Translations under genes and position numbers: made by a program
The notes under the pieces: generated by a model
What the model was told of the DNA's origin: nothing
What the model saw: only the letters and a program-made list of their open reading frames with translations
The model's database searches: none
Shown: in pieces, positions 1 through 53,535 of the stretch
How the letters are laid out: each line of letters starts with the position of its first letter
Position numbering within the stretch: the first letter of the stretch is position 1
From: Algoriphagus aquimarinus
GTDB taxonomy: Bacteria > Bacteroidota > Bacteroidia > Cytophagales > Cyclobacteriaceae
Length of the DNA stretch: 64,000 nt
Reading direction: 5' to 3'
Assembly: GCF_007997215.1 (NCBI RefSeq)
Contig: NZ_VORW01000001.1
Span: 1 to 64,000, forward strand

Positions 1-251
1 TCGATAGGAAACAATACCGTCGTATTAAAACCATAATGTGTGGCAAGGATCTTCGCCATCATCGGCATAGATTCCTCAGACCTATACTCATCGTCACCTG
101 AGATCAACACGATATTTTTGCCTTTTCTAGGCCCATCTTTCCCTTCAAAATGTAAGAAAGTAGTGCCATTTTGGGCTGAAACACAGGAAATTGAAATAAC
201 TGCCAGCAAAATCACTAAATACGCAGGCTTGTTGAGAGATTTATTATTCAT
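1..251 (-). CDS. ThuA-like domain protein, N-terminal part only
   Basis: Reading the minus strand from the ATG at 251 gives an open frame that runs off the left edge of the window. The first 27 or so residues are a signal peptide (basic start, hydrophobic LVILLAVISI core, then VSAQ before the mature protein). The mature start contains GKNIVLISGDDEYRSEES followed by MPMMAKILATHYGFNTTVL. This pattern is, from memory, the opening of ThuA-like (trehalose-utilisation, glutamine-amidotransferase-fold) proteins of Bacteroidota and Planctomycetes. It would act in the periplasm. It is divergent from the Tat-exported oxidoreductase at 442, and ThuA-like and Gfo/Idh/MocA proteins are commonly neighbours. 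The C-terminal part lies outside the window, so completeness cannot be judged. Confidence 0.75.
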   Translation of the reverse strand, partial: MNNKSLNKPAYLVILLAVISISCVSAQNGTTFLHFEGKDGPRKGKNIVLISGDDEYRSEESMPMMAKILATHYGFNTTVLFPI

Positions 252-40550: not shown

Positions 40551-41489
40551 TTATTTGTCTTCGATGACGTAAGCGCCTCGTGTATTGATTTCAGAGAAAT
40601 ACACATCCACACCCAGACCAATTTTTGAAAACATTTCTTTGCCTGCTTCACCTACAGCTTCAGCAATTTCTTTCCCTCGAGAAAGCGCGAATAGCGTGGG
40701 ACCTGAGCCAGAAATTCCCATTCCTAATGCACCCGCGACCTTTAAGGCTTCTCTTACTTCGTAAAAACCCGGAAGCAATACCGCTCGATAAGGTTCTGCA
40801 ATCACATCCCGAAGTGATCTTGAAATCAATTCAAAATCACTTTCATATAAACCTGCAATCAATCCTGCAACATTTCCAGATTGGATCGTCGCATGCTTCA
40901 TAGGTATCTGATCTCTAAGCACCGATCTAGAGTCCGCAGTTTTCAACTCGAAATGTGGGTGTAATAAGGTACAATACAAGCCTTCTGGTACGGGCAGTTT
41001 GATCACATCCAAAGGATGATAATCTCGAATCAACACAAAGCCTCCTAGTAAACTTGGCGCTACATTATCAGCATGCCCAGCTCCACAAGCCACCTTTTCT
41101 GCAGCTATCGCAAAAGGCAAAAGATCTTTTTTCTCGAAAGGATCACCCAAAAGCCTGTTAGCAGCAGCTAATGCCGCAATGGCACTTGCTGCACTAGATC
41201 CCATTCCCGAGCCCAAAGGCAAACCTTTGGTTAGGTAAATGTTCATTCCAACTTTAGAATCCAATTCATCCAACATGGCTTGAATGGCCACTGCGCAGGT
41301 GTTTTTCTCAGCTTCTAGAGGAAGCTTCCCACCGTCTCCTTCTATAGAAACGACCACTAATCCCGGCTCATCTTTCAGAACCAGCTCTACAGTATCACCC
41401 ATGGCATCAATCGCGAAGCCAAGGATATCAAATCCACAGGACACATTCGCGACAGTTGCAGGAGCATAAGCTTTGACGGAGCGCAACAT
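40551..41489 (-). CDS. thrB: homoserine kinase
   Basis: The 312-residue GHMP kinase opens VKAYAPATVANVSCGFDILGFAI. It has the ATP-binding PLGSGMGSSAASAIAALAAAN block (about 91-111), CGAGHADNVAPSLLGGF, and the C-terminal GISGSGPTLFAL loop. It phosphorylates homoserine for ThrC. The start ATG shares a base with the thrA stop (TAATG), so the two are translationally coupled. Confidence 0.96.
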   Translation of the reverse strand: MLRSVKAYAPATVANVSCGFDILGFAIDAMGDTVELVLKDEPGLVVVSIEGDGGKLPLEAEKNTCAVAIQAMLDELDSKVGMNIYLTKGLPLGSGMGSSAASAIAALAAANRLLGDPFEKKDLLPFAIAAEKVACGAGHADNVAPSLLGGFVLIRDYHPLDVIKLPVPEGLYCTLLHPHFELKTADSRSVLRDQIPMKHATIQSGNVAGLIAGLYESDFELISRSLRDVIAEPYRAVLLPGFYEVREALKVAGALGMGISGSGPTLFALSRGKEIAEAVGEAGKEMFSKIGLGVDVYFSEINTRGAYVIEDK

Positions 41490-43939
41490 TATTCTCTAGT
41501 GTAGTTACCTATACGAATCACATCTGCAAATACACCTGCTGCAGTTACATCTGCACCAGCACCTGGACCTCTGATGATCATAGGTCTATCTCGATATCTA
41601 TCAGTGGTCAAGAGAATCATATTATCGCTTCCTCCCAATCCACTGAATGGATGTGAAATTGGAAGCGAATTCAAGCCAACTTTCGCTTTACCATTCTCCA
41701 AAGTCGCCATGAAGCGTAATTTCTCTCCTTTCGCTTCAGCAGTTTTCAGCATTTCAGCAAAGTCTATATCGTGTGTTCTCAGCACTTCAAAAAATTCTGG
41801 AACTGAAGCTAAATTCTGACAATCCTCAGGAACCATGCTTTGGATCTCGATAGAATCAAATTCCAAATCTTGCTCAGCCTCACGACCCAAAATCAGAATC
41901 TTTCTCGCCACATCCATGCCACTCAAATCATCTCTAGGATCTGGCTCAGTGAAACCAAGTTCCTTCGCTTTTTTCACCACTTCAGAGAAAGGATCTCCTT
42001 TTTCTAATTCGGAGAAAATATAATTCATGGAGCCAGAAAGCACCGCTTCAATGCGAATCACTTTATCTCCACTTAGCATCAAATCCTGTAAGGTATTGAT
42101 CACAGGAAGGCCAGCCGCCACATTGGTTTCGTAAAGGAATTTCACGCCACGTTTTTTCGCCAACTTCTTCAATGCTCTATATTGCTCCATAGAGCCTGAA
42201 TTGGCTTTTTTATTAGGAGTCACAATCGCAACCTTCGCTTCAAGAATTTTGGTGTACAATTCTGCCACATCCTGACTTGCGGTACAATCCACAAATACAG
42301 AGTTGGAGAAATTCATCTCTTCCATAGTCTTGATGAATTTGCTGAGGTCAGTTTTGGTGTCCGACTCGCTCAATTCATATGGATTGGAAAGGTCAAAGCC
42401 ATCTTCATGGAAAGCCATGTATCGACTATTCGCCATTCCATGAATCTGGATGTCCAGCTCATTTTCTCCTCGCAATTTCTGCTGCTGATTGGTAATCATT
42501 TTAATCAAAGCCTGCCCAATCAAACCAACTCCTACTAAGAATACGTGGAGCACTTTATTTTCTGAAAGGAAAAAGGCCTCGTGAAGCGCATTCAGAGCTT
42601 TCTGCAGATCTGGCTGAGGAATAACCGCTGAAATATTTAATTCCGAGCTTCCTTGCGCAATAGCACCTACGTTAATGTTATTTCTTCCCAATGCACGGAA
42701 CATTCGTCCTGAAGCTCCTGGGTTATGCTTCATGTTTTCACCTACTACAGCTACAGTAGCCAAGTCATGCAACAAGATTACTTCGTCCATTTCACCAGAC
42801 TTGATTTCGTAGAAAAACTCCTTTTCCACTGCCTCCTTCGCCAGATAAGACTCATGAGTTTTGATCGCCAAACAAAGGCTGTGCTCTGAAGAAGCCTGAG
42901 AAATCAATAGAATATTAACTCTTGCTTCTGCCAATGCTTTGAATACACGACTTGTACCTACTACAGAATCCAGCATTCCTGCTCCTTGCACGGTGACAAT
43001 CGAAACATTTTGAATAGAGCTAATTCCTTTTATCAATGCTCCAGGGCTTACTTCTCCATTGATTAGGGTGCCTGGATTTTCTGGTTCAAAGGTGTTTTTG
43101 ATATAAATCGGGATGCTTTTGCGCATCGCAGGCTGCATGGTCGCCGGGAAGATTACTTTTGCCCCAAAATGCGAAAGCTCCATCGCCTCATTGTAGCTCA
43201 ACTGAGGTATTGTAAATGCTGTATACACCAATTTTGGATCTGAAGTCAACACTCCGGAAACATCAGTCCAGATTTCAAGATTTTCTGCGTCTAAAGCTGC
43301 GGCAAAAATAGCAGCAGTATAATCTGATCCAGATCTTCCAAGCGTAGTAGTCTCTCCTTTGGCAGTAGAAGCAATGAATCCTGTGATCACTTTGATCCCA
43401 TCATGCTTCGCAAAGTAATTTTTGATAGCTGTATTAGTAACTTCGAAATCAACTTTGGCCTGACCAAATCGATCATTAGTACAAATCACCTCACGGGCAT
43501 CGAGGAACTGGGTTTTGAATCCATGTCCCTGCATAGACTCAGCAAGAATAAATGCTGCAAGTCTCTCTCCAAAACTTGCCACATAATCAAGTGTACGAGG
43601 AGAGTTTTCCTTGATAAGGTAGATACCATGAAAAAGATCTTCAAGTTCTTTAAATCGCACTTTCACGAAAGTCATCACGGTGGACTGGCTCTGCACTGAA
43701 ATAAGTTGGCGTACAATGGTCAAATGCTTCTCTTCCAGAGTTTGAAGCACTTCTCGGTACGCTTCATCACCTTCTCTTGCTAGCTGAGCAATCTTCAATA
43801 AGCTCTCCGTTACCCCACCAAAAGCAGAAAAAACAATGGCTACTTCATGCTCTTTGAGTTTGTCCTTAATGATGGAGAAAACTCGCTGTATATTTTCTGG
43901 GTTCGCTACGGATGAGCCACCGAACTTGATGATTTTCAT
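41489..43939 (-). CDS. thrA: bifunctional aspartate kinase / homoserine dehydrogenase
   Basis: The 816-residue protein has the kinase at the N-terminus (KFGGSSVANPENI, then GETTTLGRSGSDYTAAIFAAAL near 215-235) and two ACT-like repeats (about 310-455, with VTVQGAGMLDSVVGTSRVF and VVGENMKHNPGASGRMF). The homoserine dehydrogenase follows from about 465 (FLVGVGLIGQALIKMI, TPNKKANSGSM, YETNVAAGLPVI, LSGSMNYIFSEL, GFTEPDPRDDLSGMDVARKILIL). ACT domains give feedback by threonine. It heads thrABC and is preceded by a Thr-rich leader peptide. Confidence 0.97.
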   Translation of the reverse strand: MKIIKFGGSSVANPENIQRVFSIIKDKLKEHEVAIVFSAFGGVTESLLKIAQLAREGDEAYREVLQTLEEKHLTIVRQLISVQSQSTVMTFVKVRFKELEDLFHGIYLIKENSPRTLDYVASFGERLAAFILAESMQGHGFKTQFLDAREVICTNDRFGQAKVDFEVTNTAIKNYFAKHDGIKVITGFIASTAKGETTTLGRSGSDYTAAIFAAALDAENLEIWTDVSGVLTSDPKLVYTAFTIPQLSYNEAMELSHFGAKVIFPATMQPAMRKSIPIYIKNTFEPENPGTLINGEVSPGALIKGISSIQNVSIVTVQGAGMLDSVVGTSRVFKALAEARVNILLISQASSEHSLCLAIKTHESYLAKEAVEKEFFYEIKSGEMDEVILLHDLATVAVVGENMKHNPGASGRMFRALGRNNINVGAIAQGSSELNISAVIPQPDLQKALNALHEAFFLSENKVLHVFLVGVGLIGQALIKMITNQQQKLRGENELDIQIHGMANSRYMAFHEDGFDLSNPYELSESDTKTDLSKFIKTMEEMNFSNSVFVDCTASQDVAELYTKILEAKVAIVTPNKKANSGSMEQYRALKKLAKKRGVKFLYETNVAAGLPVINTLQDLMLSGDKVIRIEAVLSGSMNYIFSELEKGDPFSEVVKKAKELGFTEPDPRDDLSGMDVARKILILGREAEQDLEFDSIEIQSMVPEDCQNLASVPEFFEVLRTHDIDFAEMLKTAEAKGEKLRFMATLENGKAKVGLNSLPISHPFSGLGGSDNMILLTTDRYRDRPMIIRGPGAGADVTAAGVFADVIRIGNYTRE

Positions 43940-46464: not shown

Positions 46465-47358
46465 ATGAATCAACTCAAAAGCATCATTAAGAATCAGGAA
46501 AATAAGAGAAGAAGGAACTTCCTTTTTAAGCTGATTTTACTGATCATTTTGATTGTAGGTTTTGAATCAAACACCTGGCTCACACCATTTTTTGAACGCT
46601 ATGTAATATTAGCTAATGTGGTTCGCGCATTGATTTTCCTTCTTAGCGGAAATCTTATCATCTCCCTTGCTCGAATTATCACGCTTCAGTTTTACCTCAA
46701 AAGAACTGAGGAGTCCAGAGTGCAACCCAACTTCGTGATTGGTATTGATCGTCTTGCCACTTTGCTGAATATGATCGTCATCTTGGTGACTTTCATGTTG
46801 CTTTTTGGTGTCGAACCATTAAAATTCCTTACCAGCATTACAATCGTAGCTGCAGCAATTGCTTTGCTCACCAAAGATTACATCACCAATATTGTGAATG
46901 GCTTGATCATCATGTTTTCGGATCAGTTAGAGATCGGGGATAAGATTTTGATTGGGAAAAATGTTGGTTTCATTCGAGACATCACCCTGATCAATATGGT
47001 GCTGAAAAGTGAAACAGGTGAGATTATCATCGTCCCAAACACGCTTGCTTTGACTTCTGAAGTGGTGAATTACTCCAAGAACAATTCGCATCAGATGATA
47101 TTTGATTCGGAAGTACCCTTCTACTCGAAAATTCAATTGCAAGAATTAGAAACTCAGCTCAACAACGTCTTGGATGAATTTTCAGAGTTTGTTTACGTAG
47201 AAGGAGCCCAGCTAAATGTGATCGAAAGAAAGCCTGAAAGCATTATTGTCCGTTATCAATTCCCAATTAAGTCAGGCGAAAAGGCAACAGAAGTCAAGGT
47301 GAGAAAAGTAATCAATCAAGAACTTATCAACTGGTCTAATGAAACCCGAAAAGCTTAA
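46465..47358 (+). CDS. MscS-type mechanosensitive ion channel
   Basis: The 297-residue protein has an N-terminal basic stretch and four hydrophobic segments (about 20-37, 48-73, 95-113, 116-130). The pore-lining helix and beta domain follow with TKDYITNIVNGLIIMFSDQLEIGDKILIG and GFIRDITLINMVLKSETGEIIIVPNTL. This is the small-conductance channel layout that releases solutes on hypo-osmotic shock. The C-terminal domain is mixed alpha/beta. The last 20 bases overlap the start of the alkyltransferase-like gene. Confidence 0.9.
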   Translation: MNQLKSIIKNQENKRRRNFLFKLILLIILIVGFESNTWLTPFFERYVILANVVRALIFLLSGNLIISLARIITLQFYLKRTEESRVQPNFVIGIDRLATLLNMIVILVTFMLLFGVEPLKFLTSITIVAAAIALLTKDYITNIVNGLIIMFSDQLEIGDKILIGKNVGFIRDITLINMVLKSETGEIIIVPNTLALTSEVVNYSKNNSHQMIFDSEVPFYSKIQLQELETQLNNVLDEFSEFVYVEGAQLNVIERKPESIIVRYQFPIKSGEKATEVKVRKVINQELINWSNETRKA

Positions 47359-47677
47359 TTACTTTGATCTGGTATATCAAGTCGTCCGATTAATCCCAAG
47401 CGGAAGAGTGACCAATTACGGTGCGATTGCTCATTATTTGGGAATAAAAAGTGGTGCCAGAATGGTAGGGTATGCCATGAATGCAGCACATACCATGTCA
47501 GATGTTCCCGCTCATCGAGTCGTAAATAGCCAGGGATTATTGACAGGGAAGGGACATTTCTCCACTCCCACTGAGATGCAGGAACTCTTGGAAAAAGAAG
47601 GAGTAAAAATTGAAAAAGACAAAGTTCAGAACTTTGATAAAGTATTCTGGAATCCAGATATTGAACTGGCGCTTTGA
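47339..47677 (+). CDS. alkyltransferase-like (ATL) DNA-repair protein
   Basis: The 112-residue protein matches the DNA-binding domain of O6-alkylguanine methyltransferases: YQVVRLIPSGRVTNYGAIAHYLG, ARMVGYAMNAA and VPAHRVVNSQGLL. In true methyltransferases the motif is PCHRV; here Ala58 replaces the acceptor Cys, so it cannot remove alkyl groups itself. ATL proteins bind O6-alkylguanine lesions and route them to nucleotide excision repair; the Thermus protein TTHA1564 also has PAHRV. It overlaps mscS by 20 bases. Confidence 0.92.
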   Translation: MKPEKLNYFDLVYQVVRLIPSGRVTNYGAIAHYLGIKSGARMVGYAMNAAHTMSDVPAHRVVNSQGLLTGKGHFSTPTEMQELLEKEGVKIEKDKVQNFDKVFWNPDIELAL

Positions 47678-47716
47678 TAGGTTAAAAACACAATACGAAG
47701 AGCGCTATTCTTAATT

Positions 47717-47903
47717 GCATCTTGTGAGATACAACAATCTGTCAATATTATATCTTGAAAGATACATTTTGATATTAAAACTGTACCTCATACGATACAG
47801 TTCAAGATTTAAGACTGTACAAATCAAGAATCAAAGTTGTACAATTTCAAAATAGAAACTGTACAATTTCAAAGTAAAGCTTGTACAATTTAAAAGTAAC
47901 ACC
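47717..47903. repeat. phased repeat array upstream of the DUF4143 ATPase
   Basis: GATACA or its variant TGTACA starts at 47728, 47761, 47794, 47816, 47838, 47860 and 47882. The steps are 33, 33, 22, 22, 22 and 22 bp, all multiples of 11. The three 33-bp units carry an extra 11-bp half that makes a partial dyad with the motif, for example TATCTTGAAAGATA. The 22-bp units are TGTACAAnTTCAAAnTAnAA-like. The array ends about 15 bp before the ATPase start. It looks like helically phased protein-binding sites rather than a CRISPR. Confidence 0.8.
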
Positions 47904-47911
47904 TTTATTTG
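47880..47911 (+). promoter_or_regulatory. candidate promoter of the DUF4143 ATPase
   Basis: CTTG at 47880-47883 and TTTATTTG at 47904-47911 are 20 bp apart and resemble the Bacteroidota -33 (TTTG) and -7 (TAnnTTTG) boxes with one mismatch each. The last repeat unit overlaps the -33 box, so a bound protein would block it. The transcript would start close to the ATG. Confidence 0.4.
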
Positions 47912-47917
47912 CACAAG

Positions 47918-49087
47918 ATGAAGGTAATTAATAGACAGATATACAATGCTATACGGGAATACCAAAACAAATACCCTATACTAGCACTCACTGGGCCAAG
48001 ACAATCAGGAAAGACTACGCTTTTGCGAACACTATTCCCAGATTATCGCTATGTCAGTCTCGAAAATCCAGATAATCGAGAATTTGCCTTGAACGATCCC
48101 AATGGCTTTCTGGCAGAATACGACGATCAGGTGATCTTCGACGAAGTCCAACAAGCTCCTACTATTTTCTCCTACCTACAAACCATCGTGGATAGCAAAC
48201 CTGATAGAATGGGAGGATTTATTCTTTCTGGCTCACAAAACTTCCATCTTATGGAAAGGATAACTCAGAGTCTAGCTGGCCGAGTGGCTATTTTCAAGCT
48301 TTTGCCTCTGGACATCCAAGAGTTATCAGCCGCAAATTTGCTTGCAGACGATCCTTTTGATCAATTGATTCATGGATTTTATCCGGCAATGTATGATCGA
48401 AAGATTTCGCCAAGTGTATTCTACTCGAATTATATCCAAACCTACGTCAATCGTGATGTGACAGAACTAATGGAAGTCAGAGACTTGAGACAGTTCCAGA
48501 ATTTCCTGAGTTTATGTGCGACACGTGCTGGTCAGCTCTTGAATCTAAGTTCCTTAGCCAATGAAGCGGGAATCACACAACCCACAGCTAAATCTTGGCT
48601 TTCCGCTTTAGAGTCGAGCTACATCACGTTTCAATTATATCCATTTCATAAGAATTTCAGCAAACGGGTAGTGAAGACGCCAAAGCTTTACTTTTACGAC
48701 ACTGGGCTTTTATGTCACTTACTCAAGATCAACAAGCGGGAAATGCTACTTACGCATCCAGTAAAAGGCGCACTATTCGAGAATATGATGATCGCTGAGT
48801 TTTTCAAACAAATGCACCATAGTTATCAAAATCAAAGTCCTTGGTTTTGGAGAGATAACCATGGCGATGAAGTGGATCTGCTTTTGGACAAGGGAACATC
48901 GCTTGATATATTTGAAATGAAAGCCAGTGAAACAGTCCTCAACGAAAACTTCAAGGGCTTAGCAAAATTCGAATCGATTTCTACCATTCCATTATCCTCA
49001 AAAGGACTGGTGAATGCAGGTAGTCTGAATCAAAAAAGATCCTATGGAAACGTAATATCATGGAGAGACTTCCCTGCTTTCTCCTGA
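47918..49087 (+). CDS. AAA (AAA_14) ATPase with DUF4143 domain
   Basis: The ATG at 47918 gives 389 residues. The Walker A is LALTGPRQSGKTTLLR (about 22-37), Walker B is DDQVIFDEVQQAPTIF, and FILSGSQNF is the sensor region. YIQTYVNRDVTEL begins the middle region, followed by a winged-helix-like segment (NLSSLANEAGITQPTAKSWLSALE). The C-terminal DUF4143 part has YFYDTGLLCHLL, LFENMMIAEFFK and the nuclease-like DEVDLLLDKG...IFEMKAS pattern. The family is abundant in Bacteroidota and has no established function. The winged helix and the upstream array suggest self-regulation. Confidence 0.88.
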   Translation: MKVINRQIYNAIREYQNKYPILALTGPRQSGKTTLLRTLFPDYRYVSLENPDNREFALNDPNGFLAEYDDQVIFDEVQQAPTIFSYLQTIVDSKPDRMGGFILSGSQNFHLMERITQSLAGRVAIFKLLPLDIQELSAANLLADDPFDQLIHGFYPAMYDRKISPSVFYSNYIQTYVNRDVTELMEVRDLRQFQNFLSLCATRAGQLLNLSSLANEAGITQPTAKSWLSALESSYITFQLYPFHKNFSKRVVKTPKLYFYDTGLLCHLLKINKREMLLTHPVKGALFENMMIAEFFKQMHHSYQNQSPWFWRDNHGDEVDLLLDKGTSLDIFEMKASETVLNENFKGLAKFESISTIPLSSKGLVNAGSLNQKRSYGNVISWRDFPAFS

Positions 49088-49248
49088 TCCACCATTTCGC
49101 CAGGAAACAATCTTCCTATTCAAAGACTCAAAGTCTATCACTTAAGGCTCTTTTGTTTAATCAGTGAAAATCCCCGACAATTACCTCCGCTTCACTTGTC
49201 TCCTTTCAGAGATTAGCGGTAATTTGAAGTCTCAATTCCCCAAGCTGT

Positions 49249-52200
49249 ATGTATTTAATTTTTGATACCGAGACCACCGGCCTTCCCCGCGATTACAATG
49301 CTCCCATGTCTGATGTGGACAACTGGCCAAGGCTAGTCCAGCTCGCATGGCAACTGCATGATGGGAAGGGAAATCTGATTTCCAATCATAATTACATCAT
49401 CCGACCAGATGGATTTACCATTCCATACAATGCTGAGAAGGTCCACGGGATTTCTACCAAGCGTGCCTTAGCAGAAGGACATGACCTAAAGCAGATCCTT
49501 GGAATATTCGAAGGAGATGTTCAAAAAGCCACCTATCTGGTGGGACATAACGTCGAGTTCGATGTCAATGTAGTCGGATCGGAATATTACCGAGCGGAAG
49601 CGACCATGCCACTGACGGCAAGGCAGCTGGACACCAAAGACATTTCCACAGATTTTTGTGCGCTTCCTGGTGGTCGAGGAGGCAAATTCAAATGGCCCAC
49701 ACTTACTGAACTTCACCAAAAACTTTTTGGAAAAGGCTTCGGCGATGCCCACGATGCGGCTTATGATGTGGACGCTACAGCTCGCTGTTTCTTTGGACTG
49801 ATCACGCAGGGAGTGCAAGCTCCAGTCGCTGGAATCACGGTTCAAGAAGTAATATATGAAGCGCCGAAGCTGGAGGAAGCAAACTTTGCGCAAGCAAAAG
49901 ACACGCAGAAAGCTGCCGCAAAGGATGTCCTGAAACAAGCTGGAAAAGCCGATATCTCGGATCTTACCGACATCCCATTCACACACCTGCATGTGCATAG
50001 TCAGTATTCGGTACTGCAGGCTACATGTGAGATTCCTGCTATGGTAGCTCGCGCAAAAGAACTGGGAATGCCAGCCATTGCGATGACTGATCATGGCAAT
50101 ATGATGGGGGCATTTCACTTCGTGAAAGAAGCTTTGACAAAAGACATCAAACCGATTTTGGGCTGTGAATTTAACCTCTGTAGGGATCGAAAAAACAAAT
50201 CAAACAAAGACGATGGCTACCAAACCGTCCTCTTAGCAAAAAATAAAGCTGGCTATCACAACCTTGCAAAACTAGCTTCCTACGCCAATATCGAGGGTTT
50301 CTATTATTTGCCCCGTATTGATAAAGAGCTTTTGGTTCAGTATAAAGGCGATCTGATTGCCACGACAGGCGGACTTTGGGGAGAGATTCCATTCTTGATT
50401 TTGAACGTGGGCGAAACCCAAGCAGAGGAAGCTTTTGTCTGGTACAAAGAGCAATTTGGAGAGGACTTTTACGTAGAGCTGAATCGACATGGAGTTCCTG
50501 AGGAAGAGAAAGTAAATGAAGTGCTGCTGGAGTTTGCTAAGAAATACGATGTGAAGTATTTCGCAGCAAATAACTCTTACTACAGTCTGAAATCAGATGC
50601 TAAAGCACACGATGTGTTGCTTTGTGTAAAAGATGGGGAACTGTACGACAAGCCTAAAAAGTACATTGGTAAGCGTGGACGCGAGTTTCGCTATGGCTTC
50701 CCCAATGATGAATTCTACATCAAAACTCCCGATGAGATGAAAAAGCTCTTCGCGGATATGCCAGAAGCCATCGAGTGTACCAATGAGATTACCCAGAAAA
50801 TTGAAACCTATAAACTCGCACGAGAGGTGCTTCTTCCGGCCTTTGAAATCCCTGATGAATTCAAACATGCCGAAGATGAAGTGGATGGTGGAAAACGTGG
50901 AGAAAATGCTTTCCTAAGACACCTTACTTATGAAGGAGCGAAGAAACGTTACAAAGAAATCACTCCTGAAATCCAAGAGCGATTAGACTTTGAACTCGCC
51001 ACTATCCAAAACACCGGATACCCAGGTTACTTCTTGATCGTTCAGGATTTCATCGTTGAGGCGAGGAGAATGGGAGTTTCTGTGGGGCCAGGTCGTGGAT
51101 CCGCAGCAGGTTCTGCCGTTGCTTATTGCACGAGTATCACCAATATTGATCCAATCGCATACAATCTCCTTTTTGAGAGATTCCTAAATCCGGATAGAGT
51201 ATCCCTTCCCGATATTGATATTGACTTTGACGATGAAGGTCGCCAAAGTGTGATTGATTATGTAATCAAGAAATATGGTTCTAATCAAGTAGCCCAAATC
51301 ATCACTTACGGTACAATGGCTGCGAAATCTGCCATTCGAGATACTGCTAGAGTGCTGAATCTTCCCCTTGCTGAAGCTGGAAGATTGGCCAATTTGGTAC
51401 CTGACATCAAATTGAAAGCACTTTTTGGCTTGGCTGGAAATAGAGCTGCTCTTTCAGACAAACTGAAAGGTCAAGGCGAAATGATTGCTAAAGCCGATGA
51501 ATTAATTAAAATCTCGAAAGGACAAGATGAATCTGCTAAAACGATCAATCAGGCCACGATGCTTGAGGGATCAGTGCGAAATCTAGGAATCCACGCCTGT
51601 GGTGTCATCATCACTCCCGATGACATTACCAATTATGTGCCTGTCGCTTTAGCAAAGGATTCCGACATGGTTTGTACTCAGTTTGACAACTCAGTCGTAG
51701 AATCTGCGGGTCTGCTGAAGATGGACTTTTTGGGTCTAAAAACCCTGACGCTTATCAAAACAGCCATCAGAATTGTGAAGGAAAGACACGGAATCGAACT
51801 AGATGCTGATCATTTCCCGATCGATGATGTGAAGACCTATGAGCTTTTCCAACGTGGTGAAACAGTCGGTATCTTCCAGTATGAATCTGCTGGGATGCAG
51901 AAATACATGCGTGAGCTGAAGCCTACTGTTTTTGCAGATTTGATTGCCATGAATGCCTTGTATCGCCCAGGGCCTTTGGCATATATTCCTTCTTTTATCA
52001 AAAGAAAGCACGGAACGGAGCAGATCGAATACGATCTGGATGATATGAAGGAGTACTTGGAGGAAACCTACGGAATTACGGTTTACCAAGAGCAAGTGAT
52101 GCTTTTATCGCAAAAACTCGCAGGATTCACCAAAGGTGAGGCGGATGTTTTGCGTAAGGCAATGGGTAAAAAGCAAAAGGATGTCCTGGATAAGATGAAG

Positions 52201-53535
52201 CCAAAATTCGTCGAGCAAGCTTCAGCCAAAGGTCACGACGCCAAGAAACTTTCGAAGATCTGGACTGACTGGGAAGCATTTGCCTCCTATGCATTTAACA
52301 AATCCCACTCAACTTGCTATGCTTGGATTGCCTATCAAACAGCTTATCTAAAAGCGCATTATCCTGCGGAATATCTTGCTTCTGTTCTAAGTAACAACAT
52401 GAATGACATCACGCAGGTGACGTTTTTCATGGAAGAATGTAAGCGGGCTGGGATTCCAGTTTTGGGACCAGACGTGAACGAATCCAAAAATGGATTTACC
52501 GTAAATGCTGCAGGAGAAATTCGATTTGGAATGGCTGCTATCAAAGGTGCCGGTTCTGCTGCAGTAGATGCCATCATTCAGGAACGTGAGAAGAATGGCC
52601 CTTATAAAAACATTTTTGAGTTTGCGAAGCGTGTAAGTTCCAAGGCGCTCAATAAGAAAACTATGGAAGCTCTGGCGATGGCAGGTGGATTTGATTGCTT
52701 TCCTCAGCACCATAGAAGACAATATTTAGAGGCTGCAGACAATGATTTAAATTTGATCGAGAAGGCTACCAAGTACGCTCAGAAAGTACAGCAGGAAGAA
52801 GATAGTAATCAAGTTAGCCTTTTTGGCGGAGGTGCTGGAAACATGGAAGTCCCACTTCCGACTATTGCCCCAATGGAGCCTTTCACGCAGCTGCAGCAAT
52901 TGAATATCGAAAAAGAAGTGGTAGGTCTTTACATTTCAGGTCATCCGCTCGATCAGTTTAGACTGGAAATAGAGTCTTTTACCAATGCTTCTTTGCCTGA
53001 TCTGAATGACTTGGAAAGTCTGAGAAATCGAACTGACATCAAACTGGCAGGATCAGTTTCGACTTTTGCGCATCGCACAACCAAAAACGGAAAGCCATTC
53101 GGAACTCTGACGCTGGAAGATTATCAGGGAGCTTTTACCTTCTTCTTGTTTGGAGATGATTATGTGAAGTTCAAAGAATACTTTATGCCAGGCTGGTTCT
53201 TATTTATCAGTGGAACAGTAGCCGGTAAGCGCTGGGCGGAGAATGAACTTGAATTTAAAATTGCCAACATTACGCTACTCGATGAAATCCGTGGCAAAAT
53301 GGTGAAAGGCCTTCGTGTCAACATTGATCTGGATGATCTCACAATGGATTTGATGGAAAAGCTGCAGGCAATTACAGAGAAATATAAGGGAGATGCCAAG
53401 TTGTATTTTGATGTGGTGGACCGCAAGGAGAATATTGCTTTGGAGCTTTTCTCTAAAAGATTCTCTATTGATCCAAGCGCTGAAATGATCAAGGAACTGA
53501 AGGAAATCCCTGAGGTGGTATATCGGGTGGTTTAA
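49249..53535 (+). CDS. dnaE: DNA polymerase III alpha subunit with fused proofreading exonuclease
   Basis: The 1428-residue protein joins a DnaQ-like 3'-5' exonuclease (about 1-185: IFDTETTGLP, VGHNVEFDVNVV, DAHDAAYDVDATARC) to a DnaE polymerase. The PHP domain starts near 244 (FTHLHVHSQYSVLQ, AMTDHGNMMGAF). The palm has GPGRGSAAGSAVAYC and PDIDIDFDDEGRQ (about 655-667) with catalytic Asp residues. SYAFNKSHSTCYAWIAYQTAYLKAHYP lies in the fingers region, and the C-terminus has an OB-fold (about 1240-1330). Both polymerase and exonuclease signatures look intact, so a separate epsilon subunit may not be needed. The start is the ATG at 49249. Confidence 0.95.
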   Translation: MYLIFDTETTGLPRDYNAPMSDVDNWPRLVQLAWQLHDGKGNLISNHNYIIRPDGFTIPYNAEKVHGISTKRALAEGHDLKQILGIFEGDVQKATYLVGHNVEFDVNVVGSEYYRAEATMPLTARQLDTKDISTDFCALPGGRGGKFKWPTLTELHQKLFGKGFGDAHDAAYDVDATARCFFGLITQGVQAPVAGITVQEVIYEAPKLEEANFAQAKDTQKAAAKDVLKQAGKADISDLTDIPFTHLHVHSQYSVLQATCEIPAMVARAKELGMPAIAMTDHGNMMGAFHFVKEALTKDIKPILGCEFNLCRDRKNKSNKDDGYQTVLLAKNKAGYHNLAKLASYANIEGFYYLPRIDKELLVQYKGDLIATTGGLWGEIPFLILNVGETQAEEAFVWYKEQFGEDFYVELNRHGVPEEEKVNEVLLEFAKKYDVKYFAANNSYYSLKSDAKAHDVLLCVKDGELYDKPKKYIGKRGREFRYGFPNDEFYIKTPDEMKKLFADMPEAIECTNEITQKIETYKLAREVLLPAFEIPDEFKHAEDEVDGGKRGENAFLRHLTYEGAKKRYKEITPEIQERLDFELATIQNTGYPGYFLIVQDFIVEARRMGVSVGPGRGSAAGSAVAYCTSITNIDPIAYNLLFERFLNPDRVSLPDIDIDFDDEGRQSVIDYVIKKYGSNQVAQIITYGTMAAKSAIRDTARVLNLPLAEAGRLANLVPDIKLKALFGLAGNRAALSDKLKGQGEMIAKADELIKISKGQDESAKTINQATMLEGSVRNLGIHACGVIITPDDITNYVPVALAKDSDMVCTQFDNSVVESAGLLKMDFLGLKTLTLIKTAIRIVKERHGIELDADHFPIDDVKTYELFQRGETVGIFQYESAGMQKYMRELKPTVFADLIAMNALYRPGPLAYIPSFIKRKHGTEQIEYDLDDMKEYLEETYGITVYQEQVMLLSQKLAGFTKGEADVLRKAMGKKQKDVLDKMKPKFVEQASAKGHDAKKLSKIWTDWEAFASYAFNKSHSTCYAWIAYQTAYLKAHYPAEYLASVLSNNMNDITQVTFFMEECKRAGIPVLGPDVNESKNGFTVNAAGEIRFGMAAIKGAGSAAVDAIIQEREKNGPYKNIFEFAKRVSSKALNKKTMEALAMAGGFDCFPQHHRRQYLEAADNDLNLIEKATKYAQKVQQEEDSNQVSLFGGGAGNMEVPLPTIAPMEPFTQLQQLNIEKEVVGLYISGHPLDQFRLEIESFTNASLPDLNDLESLRNRTDIKLAGSVSTFAHRTTKNGKPFGTLTLEDYQGAFTFFLFGDDYVKFKEYFMPGWFLFISGTVAGKRWAENELEFKIANITLLDEIRGKMVKGLRVNIDLDDLTMDLMEKLQAITEKYKGDAKLYFDVVDRKENIALELFSKRFSIDPSAEMIKELKEIPEVVYRVV

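What the first reader, a model, noticed from the sequence alone, without database searches (positions are those of the whole stretch)
47717..47911. Repeat array with 11-bp-multiple spacing before a DUF4143 ATPase
Seven copies of GATACA/TGTACA start at 47728, 47761, 47794, 47816, 47838, 47860 and 47882, giving steps of 33, 33, 22, 22, 22 and 22 bp. The whole array keeps one face of the helix, and the 33-bp units carry an extra dyad half. It abuts and partly overlaps a candidate promoter of an AAA_14/DUF4143 gene whose protein has a winged-helix-like segment. I infer a cooperative operator, perhaps autoregulatory, or a binding platform for the ATPase itself. This is the best candidate for an undescribed system here.
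Basis: partly seen in the sequence, partly recalled or inferred. Interest (0 to 1): 0.72.

Follow-up and report, generated by a model that had tools for sequence, protein, structure and literature searches.

The report
Private operator array of defence-candidate ATPase
A row of 22-base repeats is fused to the start of a gene from a very common but untested family of suspected anti-virus proteins, and relatives of that gene often carry their own, differently worded repeats in the same place, which suggests that each protein reads and controls its own switch.

Summary
The array is real. The last unit supplies the -33 TTG of a Bacteroidota-type promoter, 20 nt before the -7 box, of an AAA_14/DUF4143 gene. 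PADLOC models call this protein PDC-S01, a phage-defence candidate. It is predicted as a STAND-like ATPase with a winged helix and a PD-(D/E)XK nuclease domain. Orthologues in other genera keep the array at 22 bp (118 of 119 scored steps). Other clades carry a different palindrome or a 32/54-bp direct repeat at the same place: 108 of 127 sampled genes pass a repeat score, against 0 of 38 control ORFs; 30 of 62 pass in a wider phylum sample. In a close relative that lacks the gene, homology stops at the array's outer edge, so array and gene are absent together. Best reading: an autoregulatory operator bound by the ATPase's own winged helix. Evidence for that binding is moderate: one residue-motif association led all columns but did not replicate significantly. 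The searches made here found no description in print.

The parts
47728..47814 (+). Degenerate distal part of the array: GATACA at 47728, 47761, 47794 and TGTACC at 47782; spacing irregular, not conserved as 33-bp units
   Evidence: relatives
47815..47902 (+). Four 22-bp units (start 47815, 47837, 47859, 47881), consensus near TTGTACAATTTCAAAATANANC; proposed operator
   Evidence: orthologues
47881..47911 (+). Core promoter: TTG (47881-47883, inside the last unit), 20 nt, TTTATTTG (47904-47911)
   Evidence: read; spacer of 20 in 30 of 38 loci; consensus recalled
47918..49087 (+). ATPase gene, 389 aa, AAA_14 + DUF4143, PADLOC PDC-S01 (a TTG 9 nt upstream is in frame; relatives begin at the ATG)
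47975..48325 (+). AAA_14 ATPase domain, residues 20-136; fold of archaeal/STAND ATPases over residues 1-270
48578..48616 (+). Predicted recognition helix of the winged helix, residues 221-233, with residue 222 (P here)
48764..49015 (+). PD-(D/E)XK-like nuclease domain, residues 283-366, with E288, E318, D320, E333, K335
47720..49119 (.). Block (array plus gene) absent as a whole in the close relative G153, where 62 unrelated bp stand instead

Best explanation
The array is the private operator of the ATPase gene behind it. The winged helix of the ATPase (about residues 190-259) binds the 22-bp units, one protomer to each two helical turns and all on one face, so that neighbouring ATPase domains can meet. 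Because the last unit holds the -33 element and reaches into the spacer before the -7 box, occupancy would shut out RNA polymerase and hold the gene low; a change of nucleotide state or loss of occupancy would switch it on. The output domain looks like a PD-(D/E)XK nuclease, so tight self-control makes sense. Shown here: array, overlap with a promoter-like sequence, conservation, clade-specific variants, joint absence, domain folds by prediction. Inferred: binding by the ATPase itself, repression, cooperativity, trigger, and any role in defence.
For: Orthologues from several genera keep the array at 22 bp: 118 of 119 steps when 21-23 was allowed, and 105 at 22, 8 at 44, one each at 19 and 28 when any distance from 12 to 60 was allowed. 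TTG-to--7 spacer of 20 in 30 of 38 loci. Repeat score of 13 or more upstream of 108 of 127 DUF4143 genes (103 of 122 distinct upstream stretches), 0 of 38 other ORFs of the window, 2 of 635 shuffles; 30 of 62 in a phylum sample against 2 of 310 shuffles. The 22-bp type falls in one clade, 33 of 34 rows. Array and gene absent as one block in G153. Palindrome half-site of L071 (TTGTACAATTTTGGAAT) nearly equals the array unit. Winged helix in a model of pLDDT 89.8. K222/GGAAT is the best of 356 columns: 9 of 11 units against 2 of 35, 0 of 120 permutations. At 70% clustering the four best of 351 windows lie in 210-223, the helix-turn-helix.
Against: No binding or expression data. K222/GGAAT did not replicate significantly in later loci: 2 of 5 against 1 of 20 (p 0.09), and 1 of 3 against 1 of 10 for proteins under 50% identical to the first set (p 0.42). 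At 50% clustering the helix windows are not special (window 219-229: 91 of 500 permutations as high; best windows lie at 107-119 and 271-287). The rule thins out beyond the family: 32 of 62 phylum genes, 14 of 19 viral-contig loci and 8 of 10 plasmid loci do not pass the score, and 37 of 77 later genes reach 12.
Confidence: 0.68

Rival explanations
1. The array is an operator, but it is read by a separate host regulator; the ATPase gene is only the target.
For: Binding by the ATPase is not shown; covariation is moderate and did not replicate significantly.
Against: Each clade of the family has its own repeat at its own start, and type follows the protein tree, so a separate matched regulator would be needed for each; none lies beside this gene, whose neighbours are an MGMT-like gene and dnaE. 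No second tandem array was seen among 30 inspected sites of this genome.
Confidence: 0.14
2. The repeats are an end or an integration or docking site of a gene cassette (array plus ATPase) that moves as a unit; effects on the promoter are secondary.
For: Array and gene are absent together in G153, with the left break at the array's outer edge. Paralogues are numerous and patchy: 55 of 72 same-genus genomes have at least one match, with up to 16 in one genome.
Against: No TGTACAATTT within up to 1.5 kb downstream in any of the 40 loci printed, as far as each locus reaches. dnaE lies downstream in 22 Algoriphagus loci, some of them the same species twice, so the gene has stayed put.
Confidence: 0.08
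3. The element works in RNA: a leader hairpin or antisense RNA controls the gene.
For: In several palindrome clades the 3' arm runs into the start codon (for example L002, L105, L067).
Against: In the 22-bp clade the units lie before the predicted -7 box, so outside the predicted transcript. No Rfam match at E up to 1 in 47300-49300. RNA structure covariation was not tested.
Confidence: 0.05
4. A neutral tandem repeat made by replication slippage.
For: Unit number varies between orthologues: 2 to 8 by the script in 36 of 38 loci, and at least ten in L020 by reading.
Against: Same spacing, core and place relative to the promoter across genera, other versions in other clades, and only one or two units left before the broken copies L064 and L119.
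Confidence: 0.03

Closest known systems
PDC-S01 (PADLOC phage-defence candidate, single gene; AAA_14/DUF4143)
   Same: The protein matches seven PDC-S01 models, best E 4e-98; ATPase fused to a PD-(D/E)XK member, as described for PDC-S01 (PMC12988326, passages).
   Different: The passages read say nothing of an operator; this copy sits between an MGMT-like gene and dnaE, not among known defence genes.
RptR, repressor of a phage-defence island (PMC12255303, passages)
   Same: Represses its native promoter by binding a series of direct repeats that overlap the promoter; unit number matters.
   Different: Separate small regulator, three 9-bp repeats with a TAGCTA palindrome, E. coli; not an ATPase-nuclease that would regulate itself.
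Archaeal ATPases PABY2304 (2qen) and SSO1545 (2fna)
   Different: Matched over the N-terminal part only; whether their genes carry operators was not looked at.
IniR, STAND-type regulator of mycobacteria (PMC5760070, passages)
   Same: ATPase domain likened by its authors to SSO1545; binds a promoter and drives transcription.
   Different: Activator of another operon, 818 aa, with an SdiA-like C-terminal DNA-binding domain; no nuclease part in the passages read.

Membership tests
PDC-S01 / AAA_14-DUF4143 ATPases | AAA_14 and DUF4143 domains over cut-off, PDC-S01 model match | tested here: met
   Pfam 97.0 and 168.1 bits against cut-offs 27 and 28.1; PADLOC E 4e-98
PDC-S01 / AAA_14-DUF4143 ATPases | Embedded among defence genes (how the candidate was named, per PMC12988326 passages) | tested here: not met
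   For this copy only: mscS-type gene and MGMT-like gene upstream, dnaE downstream. Other copies not examined
PDC-S01 / AAA_14-DUF4143 ATPases | Antiviral activity | not testable with these tools
   Validation said to be pending for most such candidates (PMC12988326, passages)
Autoregulatory operator | Sites overlap the promoter of the gene | tested here: met
   TTG of the last unit 20 nt before the -7 box; 30 of 38 loci. Promoter by consensus only
Autoregulatory operator | Conserved with the gene and its family | tested here: met
Autoregulatory operator | Bound by the product of the gene | tested here: inconclusive
   Covariation only: for; mixed. Binding itself not testable here
STAND-type NTPase | ATPase-winged helix fold with Walker A and B | tested here: met
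   By prediction: (2qen, 2fna, then NLR-type proteins)
PD-(D/E)XK nuclease | Fold and catalytic E, D, ExK | tested here: met
Transposable element end | Matching repeats at both ends of the cassette | tested here: not met
   No TGTACAATTT downstream in the 40 loci printed

The most novel reading that the evidence does not exclude
PDC-S01 proteins are self-addressed immune ATPases: each clade has its own DNA address at its own promoter, in one of a few geometries (head-to-tail 22, 32 or 54 bp, or head-to-head), and the array is not only an operator but a dock on which the ATPase-nuclease is stored as an inactive, phased assembly. A virus that disturbs the chromosome or host transcription would empty the dock, releasing nuclease and allowing new synthesis at once. 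Specificity would evolve through a few recognition-helix residues such as 222, so that many paralogues can live in one cell without crosstalk.
Probability: 0.1. Interest if true: 0.88.

Novelty: new variant of a known kind. Interest (0 to 1): 0.6.

Why it matters
PDC-S01 is said to be the fourth most common defence across prokaryotes, with validation pending for most such candidates (PMC12988326, passages). A clade-specific operator-like element at the promoter of many of these genes gives a concrete handle on how they are controlled, says what to look for (a DNA address, its trigger, crosstalk between paralogues), and supplies ready reporter constructs. It also offers a natural set of matched protein-DNA pairs, with several site geometries in one family, to study how a winged-helix ATPase reads phased sites.

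Tried and rejected
Conserved 33-bp GATACA units: one copy is kept in L041 and L043 and none in L046; dropped as a defining feature. Regulon: TTGTACAATTT occurs at two other, isolated places in the genome. At up to 3 mismatches there are 97 hits against 39 for the reversed control; 30 were inspected (3 are the array itself) and no other is in a 22-bp tandem. Phage decoys: a two-unit pattern and one palindrome pattern, both exact, found nothing in viral contigs. Rfam: nothing. NCBIfam: no model over its cut-off. PDB sequence search with the single protein: nothing at E up to 1. A sigma-70 consensus scan lights up inside the units, 11 hits against 4.5 expected; I did not use it, as that consensus is not the Bacteroidota one.

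Literature: DUF4143, 1 paper, one table entry; AAA_14, 11, unrelated by title; COG1373, 6, listing only; STAND/MNS, 19, listing only; PABY2304/SSO1545/DUF234, 61, of which 15 listed, mostly caught by DUF2345; 22-bp repeats with AAA ATPase, 0; PDC-S01, 3, passages of two read, 69 papers, 10 listed, passages of one read. Tandem repeats near P. gingivalis ATPases, remembered as a possible precedent, were not found. I can say only that these searches found no description; most subscription papers are not held.

Weak scores: several loci outside the family look operator-like by eye but score low; I kept the scored numbers. Dropped rows: three loci of the own family were left out and 5 of 67 could not be placed; five of 24 viral loci (duplicates and a fragment) were left out, 6 of 85 could not be placed and 2 had proteins already in the first set.

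Full report
WHAT IS THERE. The window lies in a genome close to Algoriphagus: the four named loci found with the protein are all Algoriphagus. The seven hexamers are at the stated places. The strong signal is a 22-bp period: identity 0.51 at lag 22, z 6.7; lag 44 z 3.3; lag 66 z 2.3; lag 11 is depleted, z -2.2. Tandem Repeats Finder scores 47816-47899 at 87, the top of 16 rows in 64 kb. The four good units start at 47815, 47837, 47859 and 47881. The GATACA copies upstream are degenerate; L041 and L043 keep one such copy 22 bp before a clear unit, and L046 none.

PROMOTER. The TTG of the last unit (47881-47883) is 20 nt before TTTATTTG (47904-47911), and the start codon is at 47918. The Bacteroidota consensus (TTTG, about 20 nt, TAnnTTTG) is recalled. 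In a script over 38 loci of this clade (37 distinct upstreams) the spacer is 20 in 30, 19 in one, 23 in one, and not assigned in six; several other genera show the full TAnnTTTG. So the array is fused to a promoter-like core, and the units lie before the predicted transcript.

THE ARRAY STAYS WITH THE GENE. Orthologues down to about 52% identity carry the same kind of array at the same place; the weakest is L025, whose units are poor. The script counted 119 unit-to-unit steps with 21-23 allowed: 118 are 22 bp and one is 23. With any distance from 12 to 60 allowed between sites of at most 3 mismatches, 105 are 22, 8 are 44, one is 19 and one 28. Two broken copies keep one or two units only (L064, L119). 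In Algoriphagus dnaE lies downstream in 22 loci, directly or after a gap, some of them the same species twice. In G153, a close relative (its MGMT-like protein is 96% identical) in which the best match to the ATPase is only E 8e-41, homology stops at 47719, the outer edge of the array, and resumes at 49120, 33 bp after the stop codon, with 62 unrelated bp between. Array and gene are thus absent as one block. Whether this is a deletion or an uninserted site is not settled; the dnaE synteny favours deletion.

A FAMILY-WIDE PATTERN. The genome has seven such ATPases by this search, and the others show different palindromes or repeats near their starts. I fetched 127 DUF4143 genes from the genus and family and scored the best ungapped inverted or direct repeat in -200..+20. 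A score of 13 or more is reached by 108 of 127 (103 of 122 distinct upstream stretches), by 0 of 38 other ORFs of at least 200 aa in the window (mechanical ORFs, not curated genes), and by 2 of 635 shuffles. Direct repeats that pass stand at 22 bp (35), 44 (5), 32 (11), 54 (4), 51 (3), and once each at 17, 37 and 62; many palindromes are centred about 20 bp before the start. On a tree of 118 proteins the 22-bp label falls in one clade (33 of 34 rows; 2 changes, shuffled mean 29.2), and the ten 32-bp arrays fall in another clade of 13 (quick tree). This sample is biased to relatives of the query. In a phylum sample outside the family 30 of 62 genes pass against 2 of 310 shuffles, with direct-repeat offsets 32 (7), 23 (2), 33 (2), and 22, 34, 36, 42 once each. 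Of 19 viral-contig loci scored, 5 pass; L166 and L180 show four copies at 23 and 22 bp by reading. Of 10 named plasmid loci 2 pass, an Azotobacter palindrome and a Skermanella 23-bp repeat, against 0 of 200 shuffles. So the pattern is strong near the query, common in the phylum, and at this sensitivity thinner elsewhere.

DOES THE ATPASE READ ITS OWN REPEATS? The half-site of a palindrome clade (L071, TTGTACAATTTTGGAAT) and the array unit (TTGTACAATTTCAAAAT) are near copies, so one kind of site seems to be used head-to-head in some clades and head-to-tail in others. By eye, K at residue 222 went with GGAAT. A scan of all columns, residues and 113 5-mers, counted in units of 50% clusters, ranks K222/GGAAT first of 356 columns (9 of 11 against 2 of 35, p 2.5e-6), and 0 of 120 permutations were as low; the other helix columns are not special as a group (Mann-Whitney p 0.10). 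Three clusters had suggested the idea; without them it is 6 of 8 against 2 of 35, p 1.2e-4. In 85 further loci (77 usable, 37 with a scored operator) it was 2 of 5 against 1 of 20, p 0.09, and for proteins under 50% identical to the first set 1 of 3 against 1 of 10, p 0.42. A sliding-window partial correlation ranks four windows within 210-223, the helix-turn-helix, first at 70% clustering (98 proteins; window 219-229: 0 of 500 permutations as high), but not at 50% (53 proteins; 91 of 500). I take this as moderate support, not proof.

MECHANISM. Best reading: the winged helix binds the units, two turns apart and on one face, and occupancy covers the -33 box and spacer, so the gene holds itself low; the nucleotide state would set how tightly. 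The sign of regulation, cooperativity and trigger are inferred. Rivals (separate regulator, cassette end, RNA element, neutral repeat) are weighed in their own section.

NOVELTY. Autoregulatory phased operators are a known kind, and a repeat-bound repressor of a defence island exists (RptR, PMC12255303, passages). What I did not find in print, within the searches named under Tried and rejected, is the clade-specific operator of DUF4143/PDC-S01 genes. I therefore call it a new variant of a known kind.

Noticed in passing
49249-53535: dnaE (1428 aa) downstream of the ATPase carries an N-terminal RNase_T-type exonuclease domain (residues 3-181) fused to the polymerase III alpha parts.
   Followed up: no
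41489-43939: One 816-aa ORF on the minus strand that reads as a fused aspartokinase-homoserine dehydrogenase; name by eye, no search made.
   Followed up: no
whole genome G000: Single sites within 3 mismatches of the unit are more frequent than for the reversed pattern (97 against 39); most inspected ones lie in long open frames. Composition may explain it.
   Followed up: partly
L074, between the MGMT-like gene and dnaE: 62 bp of unrelated sequence stand where array and ATPase are missing; their origin was not traced.
   Followed up: no
L064 (G170) and L119 (G150): Broken copies of this ATPase (several stops) with only one or two recognisable array units.
   Followed up: partly
L166 and L180 (viral contigs), upstream of the start: Four-copy direct repeats of 23 and 22 bp before distant DUF4143 genes (35% and 31% identity) with quite different repeat letters.
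   Followed up: partly
TT_P0211 of Thermus thermophilus (paper): An AAA_14/DUF4143 gene near a CRISPR array is listed with the value 6.6 in a table of genes whose expression changes with plasmid DNA (PMC4406477, one passage).
   Followed up: no
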